Assembly: GCA_030428385.1 (NCBI GenBank)
Contig: JAUIDY010000003.1
Coordinates: forward strand, 1-64,000
From: Rhodothermia bacterium
GTDB lineage: Bacteria; Bacteroidota; Rhodothermia; Rhodothermales; JAAAOL01
Length of the DNA stretch: 64,000 nucleotides
Direction: 5' to 3'
In this document: positions 29,240 through 37,472 of the stretch, piece by piece
Numbering within the stretch: the stretch's first letter is position 1
Layout of the letters: the number at the start of each line of letters is the position of its first letter
Translations under genes and position numbers: made by a program
The notes under the pieces: generated by a model
Told to the model about the DNA's origin: nothing
Seen by the model: only the letters and a program-made list of their open reading frames with translations
The model's database searches: none

Positions 29240-30007
29240 TCAGGCGATCAGAAACGCCTCTACCCATGTATAAAAAACCCGCTGGCACCAGGGGTAAAGC
29301 ACGGTGGCAAGGGCGATGAATGGGCCAAACGGGATGCGCTGCCGGCGCGTGAGGTGGCGCAAAAGCAGGCCAACAAGGCCATACAGACCCCCGAAAAGAA
29401 ACGCGAGGTAAACCACCCCGAGGATTTGGTCGCCCAAGAACAGCGCTACCATTCCGATGAGTTTAACATCACCCATGCCGATGCCCGGCGTGCGCCAGAT
29501 CCAGAGGGTGAACTGCCGCAGCAGCACACCAAGGAGTACCGCAGCGAGCGCGATCAAAAGGTGCAGGCCCACCACCGAGGGAACTGCCCAAACGAGAATC
29601 AGCAGCCCGCCGAGCGCTCCGGTGAGCAACAGCTTGTTGGGGATAATTCGGTGGAGGCGGTCGATTTCAGCGGCGGCGAGCAGGATCGACAGTAGCAGGA
29701 GGTGCTGCACCAACTCCGTCGATATCTCCATCAATAGGATGGATACGGCAAACAGGACGGCGGTGGCGGTTTCAACAATCAGGTACCGGAGGGCGATAGG
29801 GTGATGGCAGTACGCACAGCGTCCCCGTAGCCACAGGTAGCTTAGGAGGGGCACCTTGTAACGCCACGGAAGCGGCTGCTCGCAGTGAGGACACCGCGAG
29901 CCCGGGGCGATCAGCGGAAGCCGACGGGGCAGCCGGTAGATCACCACATTTAAAAAACTGCCGATGCACGCGCCGAGCACACCGGCGTACACGCTGAGCC
30001 AGAGCAT
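29240..30007 (-). CDS. pilD: Prepilin peptidase (PilD/GspO)
   Basis: 255 residues and about eight membrane segments. The N-terminal methyltransferase-type domain shows CPHC ... CAYC zinc cysteines (RCPHCEQPLPW, GRCAYCHHPI). The catalytic aspartates are in the blocks AAEIDRLHRIIPNK and GMGDVKLIGMVAL (GxGDxK). It cleaves the leader of prepilins after Gly and methylates the new N-terminus, at the inner membrane. It is the last gene of the leftward pilus operon, after the pilin gene, 109 bp downstream of it. Confidence 0.95.
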   Translation of the reverse strand: MLWLSVYAGVLGACIGSFLNVVIYRLPRRLPLIAPGSRCPHCEQPLPWRYKVPLLSYLWLRGRCAYCHHPIALRYLIVETATAVLFAVSILLMEISTELVQHLLLLSILLAAAEIDRLHRIIPNKLLLTGALGGLLILVWAVPSVVGLHLLIALAAVLLGVLLRQFTLWIWRTPGIGMGDVKLIGMVALFLGDQILGVVYLAFLFGGLYGLVGLLLRHLTRRQRIPFGPFIALATVLYPWCQRVFYTWVEAFLIA

Positions 30008-30116: not shown

Positions 30117-30557
30117 TTAATCCGGGGTGCGCTCGGTGACAATGCCATCCTGGTCAACTTGCCAGACGTTAAAGATCCCGTCTTTGTCGAAGTCTACCAC
30201 TGAAGTGGCGATGGCGATCATGTTGGGACCTTCCGCCACTTCAATCGAAAGGACATACCGCGCCGTCCCGCCGTTTTCAACCGTAGCATTTTGTTCATAG
30301 CCAATGGCCGCGAGGTCCGTCGTGTAGGTGTCGTACTCGAAGAAGTGGGCCTGCTCCAGCGCGTGGATCTGTTTCAGGGCCATCTTGGCCTCGGTCATTT
30401 TGGCCTTGGTTGTGATATTCATAAAACGCGGCAGGGCCAACAGGGTCAGGATGCCGATGATGACCAGCACCACCATCAACTCGGTCATCGAGAAGCCGTC
30501 TTCTTCTTTCCAGAGCGCTGCGGAGAGGCGGCGGAGTGATAAGGCGAACGTTTGCAT
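30117..30557 (-). CDS. Type IV pilin / GspG-like pseudopilin
   Basis: 146 residues. The prepilin motif is KEEDGFSMTELMVVLVIIGILTLLALP: cleavage after Gly21, mature Phe-Ser-Met-Thr-Glu with the conserved Glu5, and the hydrophobic helix. The C-terminal part (EYDTYTTDLAAIGYEQN ... VDFDKDGIFNVWQVDQDG) has the type IV pilin/GspG fold with a possible calcium loop (DFDKDGIFN). The leader of 21 residues is longer than usual. It is the only pilin in the window and is processed by the neighbouring PilD. Confidence 0.9.
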   Translation of the reverse strand: MQTFALSLRRLSAALWKEEDGFSMTELMVVLVIIGILTLLALPRFMNITTKAKMTEAKMALKQIHALEQAHFFEYDTYTTDLAAIGYEQNATVENGGTARYVLSIEVAEGPNMIAIATSVVDFDKDGIFNVWQVDQDGIVTERTPD

Positions 30558-30581: not shown

Positions 30582-31079
30582 TTAGCGTAAGGGCAGGGTG
30601 GTGGTCCGGCCAGCATGGCGCACCACCACCTGGGTTTTTTCGATGCGAAGCACCTGCGCCGTGCCGATACGGTCGCCGGTGTGGGCGAAGTGAAGGACGC
30701 CGTTTTCGTCCTGGAGCAAGGCCGTGTCGTCGATGACGCCCTGCAGGCTGAGCGACAGCGGGTTGGGTTCTGAGGGCACACGCCGCCGGGAGGTGCGGGG
30801 CGCGGTAGGGCGTGGTAATAGCTGTGCGGGCGGCTGAAACGGGTCGCGGAACGCGGAGTCGAGCAGGGCGAATTGATCCTGGCGAATGGGAATGACGGCC
30901 TCGCCATCGGTGGCTAAACCGGGAGCCGCGACGGGCAGGACCAATGCGGGCTGTTCTACGGGATCGAGCCCGGTGGCGACCTGATACAGCACCCGCCCCC
31001 AGATGACCGTGCAGGTCACCGCGAGCGCCACCATCAGCGCGTTTTTGCGGGACAGGCGGGGTTGGGCAGCGTCACTCAT
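30582..31079 (-). CDS. PilP/GspC-like inner-membrane linker protein
   Basis: 165 residues from ATG 31079 (MSDAAQPRLS), which overlaps the pilO stop by 8 bp (ATGAGTGA). A single membrane segment (NALMVALAVTCTVIWGRVLYQ) is followed by a linker and a small beta-domain with the PilP/GspC homology wording LSLQGVIDDTALLQDENGVLHFAHTGDRIGTAQVLRIEKTQVVV. This domain normally contacts the secretin and couples the inner and outer membrane parts. Confidence 0.75.
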   Translation of the reverse strand: MSDAAQPRLSRKNALMVALAVTCTVIWGRVLYQVATGLDPVEQPALVLPVAAPGLATDGEAVIPIRQDQFALLDSAFRDPFQPPAQLLPRPTAPRTSRRRVPSEPNPLSLSLQGVIDDTALLQDENGVLHFAHTGDRIGTAQVLRIEKTQVVVRHAGRTTTLPLR

Positions 31080-31644
31080 ACGGGATGGGATGTTCTTTGA
31101 GGATAGACACCTGCAAGGACAGCGTGCCCAGAAGTGGGGCATCGGGCGTGGGCGCTTTGGCGGGCTCGATGGTCAGCGCCATCACCTTCATGAGGTACTG
31201 TGATTGCTCGATGCGGTGGACGAAGCGGGATAAGGCATGGAACGAGCCTTGCAACTCCAACTCGAACGGCACGTCGTCGTAGTTGGCATGGGCCAAGCGG
31301 TCGCCGGGCCGTACCTGCTTGATCGATACCGTTGTTTCCAACGCGTGGGTTTGCAGGACTTCGAGGATGGTGGACATCTGGTCGCTGCGTGGCAGGCTCA
31401 CGTACAACTGCGCGAAGCGGGCTTCGAGGTGCCGACGCTGCGCCTGCACGCGCATCCGCTCTTGCGGCCACGTCGCTACGGCAGAGAGCGTGCCTTCATC
31501 GGCTTGCCATCCCCGGTAGTTGAGCACCAGGGCCTGCAAGCGCGGCACCATAAAAATCACCACCACGTACAGGCCCAGCAGCAGCCCGCCGATAGCTGTC
31601 GCGCGCCATCGGTGTTCATCTAGCCATTGGAGTAGGGTTTCCAT
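31072..31644 (-). CDS. pilO: PilO-like inner-membrane assembly protein
   Basis: 190 residues with one N-terminal membrane helix (IGGLLLGLYVVVIFMVP), a coiled-coil helix (TWPQERMRVQAQRRHLEARFAQLYVSLP) and a ferredoxin-like domain (MSTILEVLQTHALETTVSIKQVRPGD ... VPFELELQGSFHALSRFVHRIEQ). Its ATG shares one base with the pilM-pilN stop. It forms the inner alignment complex with PilN and PilP. Confidence 0.82.
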   Translation of the reverse strand: METLLQWLDEHRWRATAIGGLLLGLYVVVIFMVPRLQALVLNYRGWQADEGTLSAVATWPQERMRVQAQRRHLEARFAQLYVSLPRSDQMSTILEVLQTHALETTVSIKQVRPGDRLAHANYDDVPFELELQGSFHALSRFVHRIEQSQYLMKVMALTIEPAKAPTPDAPLLGTLSLQVSILKEHPIPYE

Positions 31645-33191
31645 CAGGGCACGGGGTTGGAATGGTGCGCAGAGTCGGCGGACGAAACGCCGAAAGACGA
31701 CAGGTCTACCGGCAAGGCATCGAATTGCATTTCGAAGCGGATGACGGGGCGTGAACCTTGGGCAGCCTGCATAAGGAGGCGGTTGGCAGCGATGCGCTCG
31801 GAGTAGAGCAGCCGCACGTTGCGGATAAATGAGGCTTGCTCCAGCCGGTCGAGGTACGTCGCCATCGATGGTTCATCGACAGCAGCGCCTTGTAAGGTGA
31901 GCCGGTGTGTGCCGGGCGCGTTGTCCGTATTTTCGAGTGTGATGCCTGACAGCCACACGCCCTCAGGGGCCACTCGCCCCACCACGGTGAGTACGGCAGC
32001 GGCGTGGGTGCGCTCCACAACGAGCCGCTCGGCCTGGGCCACGTCGCGCTTCCACTGCGCCAGATTCTCCTGGGCGGCCTCTATTTCAGCGATCTGCCCC
32101 GACACGGTGCGCAATGCTGCATCAGAAGCGGCCTTCTTCGAAGCGATGTAGTTGCCCGTGCCAAACAGGAATAGCACGCAGAGGAACAGCATACCGCCGA
32201 CCATCACCAGCAGCCGCATGGCGTCGGCCCGCTCCAGGTGTTGCTTCCGGGCCTGGGTCTCGGACGGGGGGAGGAAATTCAGCGAAGGATCGGTGCCGTG
32301 CAGCAGGCCCAGCGCAAGGGCGGCGGATGGGAGAGCGTCGGGCGGAACCGTCAACGAGGCATCTGAGACCGCTAAGGAAAGAGTGCTCTCGCGTATAGGG
32401 AAGGTTTTGCCCGCATTCCGACGTAGGCATTGGACAACGGCGGCAGCCTGATGACCTGCCACCACTACCGGGGCGCTGGTCGGGATGCTGTCAAGCGAAA
32501 GCAGGTACGATTGTACTTCGGCACAAAGGGCCTCCAGGTCATCGGTGCCAGAAGCGAGGGCGATCAGTTTTTTTAGGCTTCCTTGCTGGCTTACACCCAG
32601 CGCTGCATGGGTGGGATGCACAGACAGGGTGATCACCTGCGGACTTTCTGCCTCGACAGCCAGCAAGGCGGCGGCTTCGGCGTCGAGACAGCCAAGAAGC
32701 ACGGGTGCAAAGCCCGCCTCGACGAGCAGGGTGTGACGGGCGTGGGCGGCTTCGCGGTGGACGAGCGCAATCAGGCACCACGTTCCTATTTCGGTAGCTT
32801 CGAGGATGCGGTAGCGCGTCTCGAAGTCGTCGAGTCGGGCACCCAGGGGCAACAAATGACTTGCTTCGGCCTCCAACCATGCGGCGAACGACGACCATTC
32901 GTCGAAGACCGGTCCTTCGGCCAGTTGGTAGCGCACATGCTGCGGATCCAGCGCACCGGCTACATAGGCATGGGTGGGTTTAACGGTGTCGGCGAGGCGC
33001 TTCAACGCTCCCTCAACATCGTGATCATCGATGAATTCGCGTTGGATGCGAGCATGAGTAAGGGTGGTTCCGAAACACACCAACTCGGTACATATCACTT
33101 CGTCGTCCCCGATGGTGATGCCGAGGAGTGTCCGGGTCGCAAACGGGACCTTGAGGCGACGCAGCAGGCGATCTTTGGAGAATGGGGCCAT
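31644..33191 (-). CDS. Fused PilM-PilN (GspL-like) protein
   Basis: 515 residues. The N-terminal ~330 residues are an actin-like PilM/GspL domain (FATRTLLGITIGDDEVICTEL at the start; LITLSVHPTHAALGVSQQG region), and a single membrane helix near 345 (LLVMVGGMLFLCVLFLFGTGNYIA) is followed by a PilN-type coil and ferredoxin-like domain (LVVERTHAAAVLTVVGRVAPEGVWLSGITLENTDNAPGTHRLTLQGAAVDEPSMATYLDRLEQ). In most type IV pilus operons these are two genes; here they are one, as in GspL of type II secretion. It overlaps pilO by one base. Confidence 0.8.
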   Translation of the reverse strand: MAPFSKDRLLRRLKVPFATRTLLGITIGDDEVICTELVCFGTTLTHARIQREFIDDHDVEGALKRLADTVKPTHAYVAGALDPQHVRYQLAEGPVFDEWSSFAAWLEAEASHLLPLGARLDDFETRYRILEATEIGTWCLIALVHREAAHARHTLLVEAGFAPVLLGCLDAEAAALLAVEAESPQVITLSVHPTHAALGVSQQGSLKKLIALASGTDDLEALCAEVQSYLLSLDSIPTSAPVVVAGHQAAAVVQCLRRNAGKTFPIRESTLSLAVSDASLTVPPDALPSAALALGLLHGTDPSLNFLPPSETQARKQHLERADAMRLLVMVGGMLFLCVLFLFGTGNYIASKKAASDAALRTVSGQIAEIEAAQENLAQWKRDVAQAERLVVERTHAAAVLTVVGRVAPEGVWLSGITLENTDNAPGTHRLTLQGAAVDEPSMATYLDRLEQASFIRNVRLLYSERIAANRLLMQAAQGSRPVIRFEMQFDALPVDLSSFGVSSADSAHHSNPVP

Positions 33192-33195
33192 ATCG

Positions 33196-35415
33196 CTAGC
33201 GCACCCGGTCGATGAGTTGTTCTACGGGGTTGCGGTCCTCTATGCTTTGCAACTCCATGCTATCCCGCACCTGGTTCCAGCGTTCGTTGTCGCGGTCGTC
33301 GCCGTAGAAGACGTGGGGCGTGAGGAAGATGACGAGTTCCGACTTGGTGGTTTCGTTGGAGGTGCTGCGGAAAAGCCGCCCCAAGAGCGGGATGCTGCCG
33401 AGGATGGGCACCTTGTTGTGCAACTCGCGCGTCTCGTCCTGAATCAGGCCGCCGAGGATGATGGTCTCGCCATCGCGCAGGCGCACGGTCGATTCGATGA
33501 CGCGGCTGTTGATGGTCGGCGGCACGTCGGGGTCGAAGTCGCCCACGGGGGTCGAAAACTCGGGGCGGATGTCGGCGGTGATTTCACCGGAGGCGCTGAC
33601 CCACGGGGTGATTTCAAGGGTGACGTTGGCTTCGATTTTTTCAAACCGCTGGCTCTGTTGCAACAGCACCTGGCTCGGCGACTGGTAGGGCGTCTGGCTG
33701 CGCAGGATGTAGTATTGCGTCGTGCCAATCGTCAGGCTGGCCGTATGGCCGTTGAGCGTTGCTAGTTGCGGGCGCGAGCGGACGTTGGCTTTGCCTTCGA
33801 CGGACAGCGCCCTGATTTTGAGGAAAAAGTCGTCCGGCAGCCGCCCCACGTTGCGGAAGCCCATCAGGTCGGTGAAGCCGTTGAGAAAGCTGCTCACCTG
33901 CGGGCCGTTGGCGCTCGTAAAAAAACCAGGCTCCACGCTGGTGCCGTCGTCCAGGGGTTCGTCGCCAAAACTCGACAGGTCGCCGTTGAACCGGTAGCCA
34001 CGGGCGGCTTCGGCCGCAGCTTCGTCGGCGTCACGGCCATAGTTGATCCCCAACTCGAACAGGTCGTCGGCCTTAAAATCGATCACAAGCGCCTCGATCA
34101 GGATCTGCGGCGTCGGATGGTCGACCTCGCGGAGGAAGGTTTCCAGTTCAAAGATGATGTCGTGCGTGCTGGTGACCATCAGCCCGTTTTGCTCCTTCAC
34201 CACCTGGATTGTCGCGTTGTCCTGCACCACCGCCGGGATCAGTTCCAGCACGGCGTCAGCGCGGATGTGCTTAAGGCGCAGCAGCCGCGTGCTCACGATG
34301 CCGCGTGTCTGCTTGTTGCCGATGAAATACACGCCGTCTTCCTTGCGAAAGGTGACGCTCGTTTGCCGGAGGAGCAGGTTGAGGGCTTCGTCGAATGTGA
34401 GCGCTGAGGCTTTGGCCGTGATGCGCTCTTCGGGCGTGTCGTACGTGATGAGGTTTACCTTCGTCTGCGCCGTGATTTCACGCACCACATCGGCAACACG
34501 GGCATTGGCCACGTCGAGGGTGATGAGGCTGTCTTCTACCTGCACCCACAGCGATCGTGAGGGATGGCCCTCGGCATCCGCGTCCGTATGCTCGCGGTCC
34601 ACATGCAGGATGCCTTCGCGGTTGCGAAGCGCAAAGCCGTTGTTTTGCAGCAGCGTTTGCAGGCCCTGCTCCACGGGCACTTCTTTCAGCATGCCCGAAA
34701 GCTGCCCCCGGATGCCGCGCCGAACCATGATGTTGCTGGCGCTCTGTTGTGCCACCATCCGCATCACCGTTTCCAGGTCGTCGTCATTCAGGTCTACCGT
34801 GAGAAGGCTGTCGCGGACGAAGACGCGCGGTGGCGTGGGCGGTGGCGGGGGTGCCTGTGGGGGCGGCTCCACATAAAAAATGTTGCGGGTGCGTTTAAGC
34901 TGCAGCCCGTTGCGGCGGCACAAAAACTCCAGCGCTTCGATCACGGGGATGTCGGACAGCCGCACCGTAATACGCTTGTCGATGCCATTGTGGACGACGA
35001 GGTTGAGCCCGTACTGATGGGCAATGCCGCGAAACACGTCACGCACATCGGCATCGCGCACATTGAGGGTTTCTAGCATCGCCGTGGCGGCGTCGGGCAG
35101 CGGGTCAGGATCTACGGGTTGTATGGTCGCAACCGTGTCGGGCGGTGTTGGTTGGGAAGTGCGTATGGCCACGCGCACGGTGCGGGTGGTGTCTTCGGGC
35201 GAAGGTTTGCCATTTTCAGACAACCATGCCTGGGCGGGCCGTGCATAGTTGGGGCCGTCAGTGCCCACCGGGAAATCCAGCGTACCCAGCAGCAGCCCCG
35301 CGAGCGTGTCGGTGGGGAGGGACGAGGACTGCGCGAGGGCGGGTCGTCCGCATGATATCCACATGCACAGCGCGAGGAAGAAAACAAGCCGATGAAAAAA
35401 AGCAGGGACAAACAT
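33196..35415 (-). CDS. Secretin (PilQ/GspD family)
   Basis: 739 residues from ATG 35415, supported by GGAGGA at 35420-35425 (leftward) directly after the stop of the TnpB-like gene. A signal peptide (LVFFLALCMWISCGRPALAQ) precedes several STN/N0-N1 domains (VRDVFRGIAHQYGLNLVVHNGIDKRITVRLSD and two similar units), then the secretin barrel (TDLMGFRNVGRLPDDFFLKIRALSVEGKANVRSRPQLATLNG; VRLRDGETIILGGLIQDETRE; SELVIFLTPHV). It forms the outer-membrane channel. Multiple STN repeats suggest PilQ more than GspD. Confidence 0.93.
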   Translation of the reverse strand: MFVPAFFHRLVFFLALCMWISCGRPALAQSSSLPTDTLAGLLLGTLDFPVGTDGPNYARPAQAWLSENGKPSPEDTTRTVRVAIRTSQPTPPDTVATIQPVDPDPLPDAATAMLETLNVRDADVRDVFRGIAHQYGLNLVVHNGIDKRITVRLSDIPVIEALEFLCRRNGLQLKRTRNIFYVEPPPQAPPPPPTPPRVFVRDSLLTVDLNDDDLETVMRMVAQQSASNIMVRRGIRGQLSGMLKEVPVEQGLQTLLQNNGFALRNREGILHVDREHTDADAEGHPSRSLWVQVEDSLITLDVANARVADVVREITAQTKVNLITYDTPEERITAKASALTFDEALNLLLRQTSVTFRKEDGVYFIGNKQTRGIVSTRLLRLKHIRADAVLELIPAVVQDNATIQVVKEQNGLMVTSTHDIIFELETFLREVDHPTPQILIEALVIDFKADDLFELGINYGRDADEAAAEAARGYRFNGDLSSFGDEPLDDGTSVEPGFFTSANGPQVSSFLNGFTDLMGFRNVGRLPDDFFLKIRALSVEGKANVRSRPQLATLNGHTASLTIGTTQYYILRSQTPYQSPSQVLLQQSQRFEKIEANVTLEITPWVSASGEITADIRPEFSTPVGDFDPDVPPTINSRVIESTVRLRDGETIILGGLIQDETRELHNKVPILGSIPLLGRLFRSTSNETTKSELVIFLTPHVFYGDDRDNERWNQVRDSMELQSIEDRNPVEQLIDRVR

Positions 35416-35427
35416 AGAATCCTCCAA

Positions 35428-35964
35428 TCAGAAGGGGCGCAGAGGGCCACCGTCAGACACAACAGGGGAACGGGCGAAACGCGGAAGACGAAACGTCAGG
35501 TCGAGGGCATAGCGGTTGGGTTGGTCGCGAAGCAGAAGACCTCGCAGCACGTGGCTATGCTGGAGGTCGTGCGATGTCACAGGAGTGGGTTGGCGGAGGG
35601 CCACCTCTTTGAGGCGGCCTTGTACCGTTGAAAGACTGACCGCATGTCCGGCATCGACCACCCGAAGCGTGCGGGCATCATAGTGGATCAGCGGGGGAAG
35701 GGTTGTGGAAGGCGGTGCTTTCAGGTAGAGGGCTGCCTGGGCGATGGCCTTTACGGCCAGGTTGGCATTCAGGCCAAAGGCGTTGCGCAACTGGCGGTAA
35801 CACAGCCGATGAATGAGGGCATTGCTGGTGGTATGCGCCCGACGGCCTGCCTGGATTGCGGCCGTCGTCGCTTCTGCAAAGGCCTGGAAGGTGGCCTCCA
35901 GCGCTTCGCAGGCGGCACGATCAGGGCGCAGGAGCAAGGTGGTATGGTGTTCTTTGTGATACAT
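35428..35964 (-). CDS. Stand-alone N-terminal half of a TnpB-like protein (IS605-type)
   Basis: 178 residues from ATG 35964 (MYHKEHHTTL). The wording follows the N-terminal WED/REC region of TnpB nucleases of the IS200/IS605 group: TLLLRPDRAACEALEATFQAFAEATTAAIQ, then RQLRNAFGLNANLAVKAIAQAALYLK (like the LPSQLAxNAIRxVA block), PPLIHYDARTLRVVDAGHAVSLSTVQGR (like the SIDYDxRxF..VSLxTLxGR block) and LRGLLLRDQPNRYALDLTF. It ends where the RuvC-like catalytic domain (GIDxG) should begin. No RuvC motif or zinc finger follows, so no nuclease activity is expected. The gene sits between pilB and the secretin with intact flanking genes. Confidence 0.65.
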   Translation of the reverse strand: MYHKEHHTTLLLRPDRAACEALEATFQAFAEATTAAIQAGRRAHTTSNALIHRLCYRQLRNAFGLNANLAVKAIAQAALYLKAPPSTTLPPLIHYDARTLRVVDAGHAVSLSTVQGRLKEVALRQPTPVTSHDLQHSHVLRGLLLRDQPNRYALDLTFRLPRFARSPVVSDGGPLRPF

Positions 35965-35968
35965 CGGG

Positions 35969-35980
35969 TTCACATGTGAA
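35969..35980. promoter_or_regulatory. Perfect 12-bp palindrome upstream of the TnpB-like gene
   Basis: TTCACATGTGAA is a perfect palindrome, four bases upstream of the ATG at 35964. It could be an operator or the trace of a transposon end, or chance. Confidence 0.3.
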
Positions 35981-36011: not shown

Positions 36012-37472
36012 TTAAAAACTGGTTTCCCGGACGATTTCCTCGGGGGTCGTGTCGCCCCGTTCCATACATTCAATGCCCACCGTTCGCAGCGTCCGCATGC
36101 CTTCGTCCATGGCTTGTTGACGTAAGGCGTAGGCGGTGGATTGCTGCGTGATGAGTTCAGTCATCCGCTCGCTGATGGGGAGGACTTCGAACAGGGCGGT
36201 GCGCCCCCGATAACCCGTGCTCATGCATGTGGCGCAGCCCGTGCCGCTGTACACAGATGCCTCTGGCTCTAGGCCATACGCCTCTGCAAAAGCGGGGTCC
36301 AGGGTGGTGGCGTGTTTGCAGTCGGGACAGATCCGCCGGACGAGCCGTTGCGCCAGCGCCAGCCGCAGCGAGGAGGCGACAAGGAAGGGCTCGATGCCCA
36401 TGTCGACCAGCCGGGTGATGGTGGAGGCAGCGTCGTTGGTGTGGATGGTGGAGAGCACGAGGTGCCCCGTGAGGGCGGCGCGGATGGCGACCTCGGCGGT
36501 TTCCCGGTCGCGGATTTCGCCGACCATGATGATGTTGGGGTCTTGCCGCAAAAACGCCCGCAGCGCATGCGCAAAGCTCAGGCCGATGTCGCTGCGTACA
36601 TGGGTTTGGTTGATGCCCGGAAGGTTGTATTCAATCGGGTCCTCGATGGTGGTGATGTTGACGGCGTCGGTGTTGAGCTCATTCAGCGCGGCGTAGAGCG
36701 TTGTCGTTTTGCCACTGCCCGTGGGGCCGGAGACGAGGATGATGCCGTACGGCTGGTGGATGGCGCGGCGAAACAGCGATAGCGGCCCTGCTTCAAAGCC
36801 CAGCGCTTCCAGGTCCAGCCGCAGGAGCCCCTTGTCGAGGATACGCAGCACAATTTTTTCCCCGAACTCAGTGGGCAGCGTCGAGACGCGCAAGTCGATG
36901 GTGCGTCCGGTACGCCGGTCGCCGTGTTGAAAACGAATGCGCCCGTCCTGGGGGCGGCGCTTTTCGGCAATGTCCAGCCCGGCCATAATTTTCAGGCGTG
37001 ACATGATGGCTTCGCGTTGCAACAAAGACAGTTCGCCGACCTGGTGCAGAACACCATCCAGCCGGTAGCGCACGCGGAAAAACGCTTCGTAGGGCTCGAA
37101 GTGAATATCGCTGGCGCGGCGCTCGATGGCTTCGCGGATGATGCGGTCCACCTGCTGTACAACCGGTCCTTGTGGGACAGAGGATTTATGGGGGACTGCC
37201 GAGCGGATTGATGTACCGCGTTCGGCGCGGGGAATGGAAGGGGGCGCCGGAGTGGCAACGGTGCCCAGAAAGTCATCAATGACGTGTGGCTCCACGTGGG
37301 TGGTCACCACCGTCAGCCCAGTCATAAAGGCAAGGTCGTGCAGCAAGGAGGGGCTCGGTGTGTCCTCTACGCCCACGGTCAGCGTGCCCGCTTCACAGCC
37401 CAGCAAGGCCAGGCGGTGCTGGTGCCAGGTGCTGGTGGGAATCCGCTCCATACAAGAAGCTAGATCGGTCAT
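36012..37472 (-). CDS. pilB: PilB/GspE-type assembly ATPase
   Basis: 486 residues. Walker A GPTGSGKTTTLYAAL, Asp box IEDPIEYNLPGINQ, Walker B PNIIMVGEIRDRETAE and His box HLVLSTIHTNDAASTITRL are all present, as is a four-cysteine zinc module (RICPDCKH ... GTGCATCMSTGYRGRTALFE). An N-terminal short domain (CMERIPTSTWHQHRL) is shorter than full GspE N1/N2 domains. The hexameric ATPase works at the inner membrane to drive pilin polymerisation. It is the first gene of the leftward pilus operon, with the promoter expected in the 315-bp gap to its right. Confidence 0.94.
   Translation of the reverse strand: MTDLASCMERIPTSTWHQHRLALLGCEAGTLTVGVEDTPSPSLLHDLAFMTGLTVVTTHVEPHVIDDFLGTVATPAPPSIPRAERGTSIRSAVPHKSSVPQGPVVQQVDRIIREAIERRASDIHFEPYEAFFRVRYRLDGVLHQVGELSLLQREAIMSRLKIMAGLDIAEKRRPQDGRIRFQHGDRRTGRTIDLRVSTLPTEFGEKIVLRILDKGLLRLDLEALGFEAGPLSLFRRAIHQPYGIILVSGPTGSGKTTTLYAALNELNTDAVNITTIEDPIEYNLPGINQTHVRSDIGLSFAHALRAFLRQDPNIIMVGEIRDRETAEVAIRAALTGHLVLSTIHTNDAASTITRLVDMGIEPFLVASSLRLALAQRLVRRICPDCKHATTLDPAFAEAYGLEPEASVYSGTGCATCMSTGYRGRTALFEVLPISERMTELITQQSTAYALRQQAMDEGMRTLRTVGIECMERGDTTPEEIVRETSF

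What the first reader, a model, noticed from the sequence alone, without database searches (positions are those of the whole stretch)
35428..35964. TnpB-like N-terminal half kept as its own gene inside a type IV pilus operon
The product ends just where the RuvC-like nuclease domain of TnpB would start, yet it has its own start and stop, and the secretin's ribosome binding site begins right after its stop. The flanking pilB and secretin genes are intact. A broken transposon would normally leave a disrupted operon or a longer remnant. Keeping a WED-like, nucleic-acid-binding half could mean reuse as an RNA- or DNA-binding regulator of the pilus genes, or simply a recent deletion.
Basis: partly seen in the sequence, partly recalled or inferred. 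Interest (0 to 1): 0.75.

Follow-up and report, generated by a model that had tools for sequence, protein, structure and literature searches.

The report
TnpB REC-lobe gene in pilus operon
A bacterium keeps only the DNA-gripping half of a transposon's RNA-guided nuclease (TnpB), without the cutting half, as an intact gene inside an operon that builds type IV pili, and a second, distantly related bacterium of the same order has the same half gene in the same slot, which points to reuse by the host rather than a broken transposon.

Summary
The 178-aa ORF (35964..35428, minus strand) lies between intact pilB and pilQ-type secretin genes. Curated profile libraries miss it. Direct comparison finds Rhodothermus TnpBs (E 4e-24, 55% identity over residues 18-119), and an AlphaFold model (pLDDT 85) matches the N-terminal halves of Cas12f and TnpB. 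It covers one complete TnpB module, the REC lobe (WED+REC), which in ISDra2 TnpB forms the TAM-duplex cleft, and ends where RuvC would begin. No RuvC, guide-RNA region or transposon end was found nearby.

A second genome of another family (G045) has the same half at the same slot in a collinear operon, there in frame with the secretin. The halves are 34-38% identical, lack mostly the same TnpB-invariant residues, and are intact. Profile searches found no full TnpB in either genome. A single recent deletion is therefore unlikely; a domesticated REC lobe is the best reading, probably a guide-free nucleic-acid-binding regulator (function inferred, untested). Weak points: only two genomes; sisterhood of the halves is favoured but not proven (AU p 0.05-0.14); and the operon tree does not pair the two carriers, so losses, transfer or two captures must have occurred.

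The parts
35428..35964 (-). TnpB REC-lobe gene (178 aa): WED strand 1 (res 3-13), REC helices (16-82), WED barrel (92-161), low-confidence tail (166-178); ends before RuvC
35969..35980 (.). perfect 12-bp palindrome TTCACATGTGAA, 4 nt upstream of the half's ATG; the only exact copy in the 6.19 Mb genome; candidate operator, untested
36012..37472 (-). pilB-type assembly ATPase, intact; stop 47 nt upstream of the half's ATG
35421..35425 (-). Shine-Dalgarno GGAGG of the secretin, 2 nt after the half's stop
   Evidence: read from sequence
33196..35415 (-). pilQ-type secretin, intact, own signal-peptide-like N terminus
31644..33191 (-). PilM/PilN-like protein of the operon (Pfam PilN match in its C-terminal part)
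31072..31644 (-). PilO
30582..31142 (-). PilP-like (weak Pfam match)
30117..30557 (-). type IV pilin (N-methylation motif)
29240..30007 (-). prepilin peptidase PilD

Best explanation
The ORF is a domesticated piece of a transposon TnpB: the REC lobe (WED+REC) alone, freed of the RuvC nuclease lobe, the guide-RNA region and the transposon ends, kept as a host gene between pilB and the secretin. Shown here: the homology, the domain boundary, the complete predicted REC-lobe fold, the same arrangement in a second family, intact reading frames, and no full TnpB found in either genome. Inferred: it is under selection as a protein. Inferred further: it works without a guide RNA, by binding a short duplex motif (the TAM-type cleft between WED and REC) or the operon's own mRNA, and so tunes expression of the secretin and downstream pilus genes. 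Translation of the half may be coupled to pilB and the secretin by the tight operon spacing; in G045 it is even in frame with the secretin.
For: Same half in the same slot in two families of the order (G000; G045 = L005/L026, E 1e-18), in collinear operons pilB-half-secretin-pilM/N-pilO-pilP-pilin-pilD. Both halves end at the WED/RuvC border. Model pLDDT 84.6 with the REC-lobe elements; the top 30 or so Foldseek matches are Cas12/TnpB-type chains: 7wju_B TM 0.66, 8exa_A 0.64. In ISDra2 TnpB the REC lobe is residues 1-176, RuvC starts at 185, and the TAM duplex lies in the WED-REC cleft (PMC10097598). No OrfB_IS605 or guided_TnpB family match in either genome, so no sign of a recent donor. No RuvC remnant in the window or around the G045 half. 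Both keep about 71% of residues that are at least 90% conserved among the nearest TnpBs but 15-19% of variable ones; the two halves keep and lose largely the same ones (8 lost in both, 22 kept in both, 7 discordant, Fisher p 0.0014), including the C-N pair that is invariant in the nearest TnpBs. G000 half: synonymous codons follow the host's genes (z=4) and it stays basic (pI 10.4).
Against: Only two genomes; no close relatives for dN/dS. Sisterhood of the halves is 94/95 in one tree, 80/67 in a wider one with a long-branch warning; AU tests do not reject alternatives. In the pilB+secretin tree G045 pairs with G029, which has no half, and G000+G045 is rejected (p 0.0006), so a single origin needs losses or transfer. 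Residue retention could partly reflect selection on TnpB before capture. The half's start has no clear Shine-Dalgarno. The G045 half has little net charge (+2). No direct evidence of nucleic-acid binding, and which TAM-reading residues remain was not established.
Confidence: 0.55

Rival explanations
1. It is a non-functional remnant: TnpB elements landed in the pilB-secretin junction, perhaps twice, lost their 3' parts by deletion, and the 5' part has not yet decayed.
For: TnpB breakage is common in the order: Rhodothermus plasmids carry a recent copy cut at the same WED/RuvC border, and phage RM378 and G052 have split TnpBs. The operon tree does not pair the two carriers. Halves sit on long branches.
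Against: Two genomes, same slot, both frames open although at most about 36-41% identical overall to any TnpB found; no donor TnpB in either genome; element flanks are gone while the ORF is intact; parallel pattern of kept and lost residues; host-like codon use in G000.
Confidence: 0.22
2. It is a selected protein, but not a nucleic-acid binder: the REC-lobe fold was recruited as a cytoplasmic protein module, for example helping the secretin or PilB, and in G045 it is made as an N-terminal extension of the secretin upstream of its signal peptide.
For: In G045 the half runs in frame into the secretin with no stop (812-aa ORF); its net charge is low; both halves have lost residues invariant in the nearest TnpBs.
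Against: In G000 it is a separate, strongly basic protein; the secretin signal peptide would be internal in a fusion, and a GTG start stands just before it.
Confidence: 0.13
3. The ORF acts in cis only, as a translated spacer that sets the PilB-to-secretin ratio; its amino-acid sequence does not matter.
For: No clear Shine-Dalgarno at its start; a strong one for the secretin 2 nt after its stop; 47 nt and 9 nt spacing to pilB in the two genomes.
Against: Conserved residues and fold are kept in both genomes; most related operons have no such spacer.
Confidence: 0.06
4. It is an RNA-guided repressor like TldR that borrows a guide RNA made elsewhere.
For: TldRs are nuclease-dead TnpB descendants tied to flagellin genes (PMC13418256), a similar theme of surface-appendage control.
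Against: TldRs inactivate RuvC but keep guide-RNA and DNA binding; in TnpB the scaffold is held by WED and RuvC together and here RuvC is absent. No Rfam match other than a tRNA in the window and no TnpB found in the genome to supply a guide.
Confidence: 0.04

Closest known systems
TnpB of IS200/IS605 and IS607 elements (Rhodothermus marinus TnpB, ISDra2 TnpB)
   Same: REC lobe (WED+REC): fold, order of elements, GLxANLA and VSL..GR motifs of the Rhodothermus-type TnpBs
   Different: no RuvC, TNB or C-terminal domain, no guide-RNA region, no transposon ends; ACN and RPTS motifs lost
Cas12f
   Same: best structural matches of the model (7wju, 8j12, 8j3r)
   Different: no nuclease lobe; no CRISPR association seen; the zinc finger that Cas12f carries between WED and REC is absent
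TldR (TnpB-like nuclease-dead repressors)
   Same: TnpB-derived, linked to a cell-surface appendage gene, host reuse
   Different: TldR retains a mutated RuvC lobe and an adjacent guide RNA; here both are gone
Truncated TnpB on Rhodothermus plasmids pRMAR01 and pRHOM17201
   Same: cut at the same WED/RuvC border
   Different: recent: about 91% DNA identity to intact copies in the same species; next to vapBC, not in an operon of pilus genes

Membership tests
TnpB RNA-guided endonuclease | REC lobe (WED+REC) homologous to TnpB | tested here: met
TnpB RNA-guided endonuclease | RuvC lobe with catalytic D-E-D | tested here: not met
   absent; no remnant nearby, no family match in the genome
TnpB RNA-guided endonuclease | guide RNA overlapping the 3' end of the gene and the transposon right end | tested here: not met
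   secretin Shine-Dalgarno begins 2 nt after the stop; no RNA family match other than a tRNA
TldR | nuclease-dead but retained RuvC fold | tested here: not met
   no RuvC
TldR | adjacent guide RNA | tested here: not met
TldR | represses a host gene | not testable with these tools
   needs expression data
Domesticated transposon protein | kept at one locus across lineages without the element | tested here: met
   two families; common origin of the two not proven
Domesticated transposon protein | purifying selection (dN/dS) | tested here: inconclusive
   no close relatives; indirect support only
Type IV pilus operon | pilB, secretin, pilM/N, pilO, pilP, pilin, pilD in order | tested here: met
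   PilP match weak

The most novel reading that the evidence does not exclude
A TnpB REC lobe has become a stand-alone, guide-free, sequence-specific nucleic-acid-binding regulator of a type IV pilus: the TAM-reading half of the Cas12 ancestor used on its own as a transcription factor or mRNA binder.
Probability: 0.3. Interest if true: 0.85.

Novelty: new variant of a known kind. Interest (0 to 1): 0.62.

Why it matters
Known host uses of TnpB (Cas12, TldR) keep the RuvC lobe and a guide RNA, as far as I know. A selected REC lobe alone would show that the motif-reading half can have a job without any guide, and would raise the testable question of how TAM/PAM recognition works and evolved apart from RNA guidance. 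It would also be a case of a transposon nuclease part built into a pilus operon.

Tried and rejected
Profile libraries (Pfam, NCBIfam, PHROGs) give no significant match to the half, because their TnpB models hold little N-terminal signal. A profile of the two halves over all 245 held genomes of the class and 394 of the phylum found no third half; weak hits in L047-L049 are spurious. The palindrome upstream of the half was tested as a regulon motif: only one exact copy in the genome, so it supports at most autoregulation. Residues shared only by the two halves are too few to show common descent (3 observed, 1.9 expected). The G045 codon score used a misframed reference gene and is not relied on. 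A sequence-profile search of PDB with the alignment used for folding gave nothing useful.

Full report
What is there. On the minus strand the window holds a type IV pilus operon: pilB (37472..36012), the finding (35964..35428), a pilQ-type secretin (35415..33196), a PilM/PilN-like protein, PilO, a PilP-like protein, a pilin and PilD. The 178-aa ORF has its own ATG and TGA; the secretin's GGAGG begins 2 nt after the stop. The genome is 6.19 Mb, 97.65% complete. It lies in the same order as Rhodothermus marinus: G036 contig C2 is 125,133 bp, the length of plasmid pRMAR01, with TnpB matches at the same places, and that record gives Rhodothermales.

Is it TnpB. Pfam, PHROGs and NCBIfam give no significant match. 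This is not evidence against: even for an intact R. marinus TnpB, the Pfam models match only residues 158 onward. Whole-genome comparison in the order finds full-length TnpBs at E 4e-24 to 1e-11, plasmid TnpBs match at 7e-15 and 1e-6, and an AlphaFold model built from the window protein and viral-contig TnpB rows (pLDDT 84.6) shows one strand, three helices and the WED barrel strands. Foldseek against PDB returns Cas12/TnpB-type chains as the only convincing matches, including ISDra2 TnpB. In ISDra2 TnpB, WED is residues 1-12 and 117-176, REC 13-116, RuvC from 185; the TAM duplex lies in the WED-REC cleft and the guide-RNA scaffold on WED plus RuvC (PMC10097598). The ORF is thus the whole REC lobe and nothing else.

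A second case. One search also found a half in G045, another family: 38% identity over 139 residues, E 1e-18, between pilB and a secretin. The G045 operon is collinear with the window's. There the half begins with GTG 9 nt after the pilB stop and runs in frame into the secretin, whose signal peptide starts at an internal GTG; no stop lies between. Profile searches found no full TnpB in either genome, and no RuvC remnant lies in the window or in 12.5 kb around the G045 half. Fifteen of 245 class genomes have this secretin. In G029 and seven genomes of family f16 with both genes in view, pilB is followed by the secretin with no half; in G022, G031 and G152 pilB is not adjacent; G027 and G147 are cut by contig ends. 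A profile of the two halves found no third.

One origin or two. The halves are sisters at 94/95, 80/67 with more TnpBs and a long-branch warning; AU tests against alternatives give 0.05 to 0.14. Among columns at least 85% conserved in the nearest TnpBs, both kept 22, both lost 8, and 7 differ (Fisher p 0.0014). Both end at the WED/RuvC border. Against this, pilB+secretin put G045 with G029 and G000 with f16, and reject G000+G045 (p 0.0006); rpoB puts G045 with G031 and G000 with G001. So either the half is old and was lost several times, or it moved with operon DNA, or it was captured twice at the same slot.

Selection. dN/dS could not be measured: no close relatives. Indirect signs: neutral simulation leaves both ORFs open in 24 of 1000 runs at 36% identity, indels not counted; the G000 half uses synonymous codons like its neighbours (z=4); conserved TnpB positions are kept at 71-72% against 15-19% for variable ones. 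The last sign is partly expected from selection on TnpB before capture.

How it may work. With RuvC and the guide-RNA region gone, RNA-guided action is unlikely. What remains is the lobe that reads a short duplex motif in TnpB, on a basic protein (pI 10.4). The simplest mechanism is a guide-free DNA- or mRNA-binding regulator of the operon. A perfect 12-bp palindrome, the only exact copy in the genome, sits 4 nt before the half's ATG; it may be an operator or chance. The low net charge of the G045 half and its in-frame link to the secretin leave room for a role without nucleic acid. All of this is inference.

Known relatives. TldRs are nuclease-dead TnpBs that keep guide-RNA and DNA binding and control flagellin (PMC13418256). 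The half shares the theme but lacks two defining features of TldR, so it is not filed there. Searches of the held library found no report of a REC-lobe-only TnpB gene; that library lacks most subscription journals.

Verdict. A real TnpB REC-lobe gene in a pilus operon in two families, more likely domesticated than decaying, with function unproven.

Noticed in passing
L061:2529-3065 and L068:1657-2193 (R. marinus plasmids pRMAR01, pRHOM17201): A recently truncated TnpB (about 91% DNA identity to intact R. marinus copies) also ends at the WED/RuvC border, then a new tail, followed by a Phd/VapC pair; annotated as a 178-aa hypothetical protein in pRHOM17201.
   Followed up: partly
L059:1531-2758 (Rhodothermus phage RM378): A TnpB close to R. 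marinus copies is split into two overlapping ORFs (p057, p058) in different frames.
   Followed up: partly
L030:5681-8119 (G045): The TnpB half and the secretin form one 812-aa open frame with the secretin signal peptide internal; possible fusion or two nested starts.
   Followed up: partly
window 35969-35980: Perfect palindrome TTCACATGTGAA before the half's start, the only exact copy in the genome; it contains a start-stop ATGTGA.
   Followed up: partly
window 30117-30557: The operon's pilin has a weak match to ComP_DUS (DNA uptake receptor pilin, E 0.007), so the pilus might serve DNA uptake.
   Followed up: no
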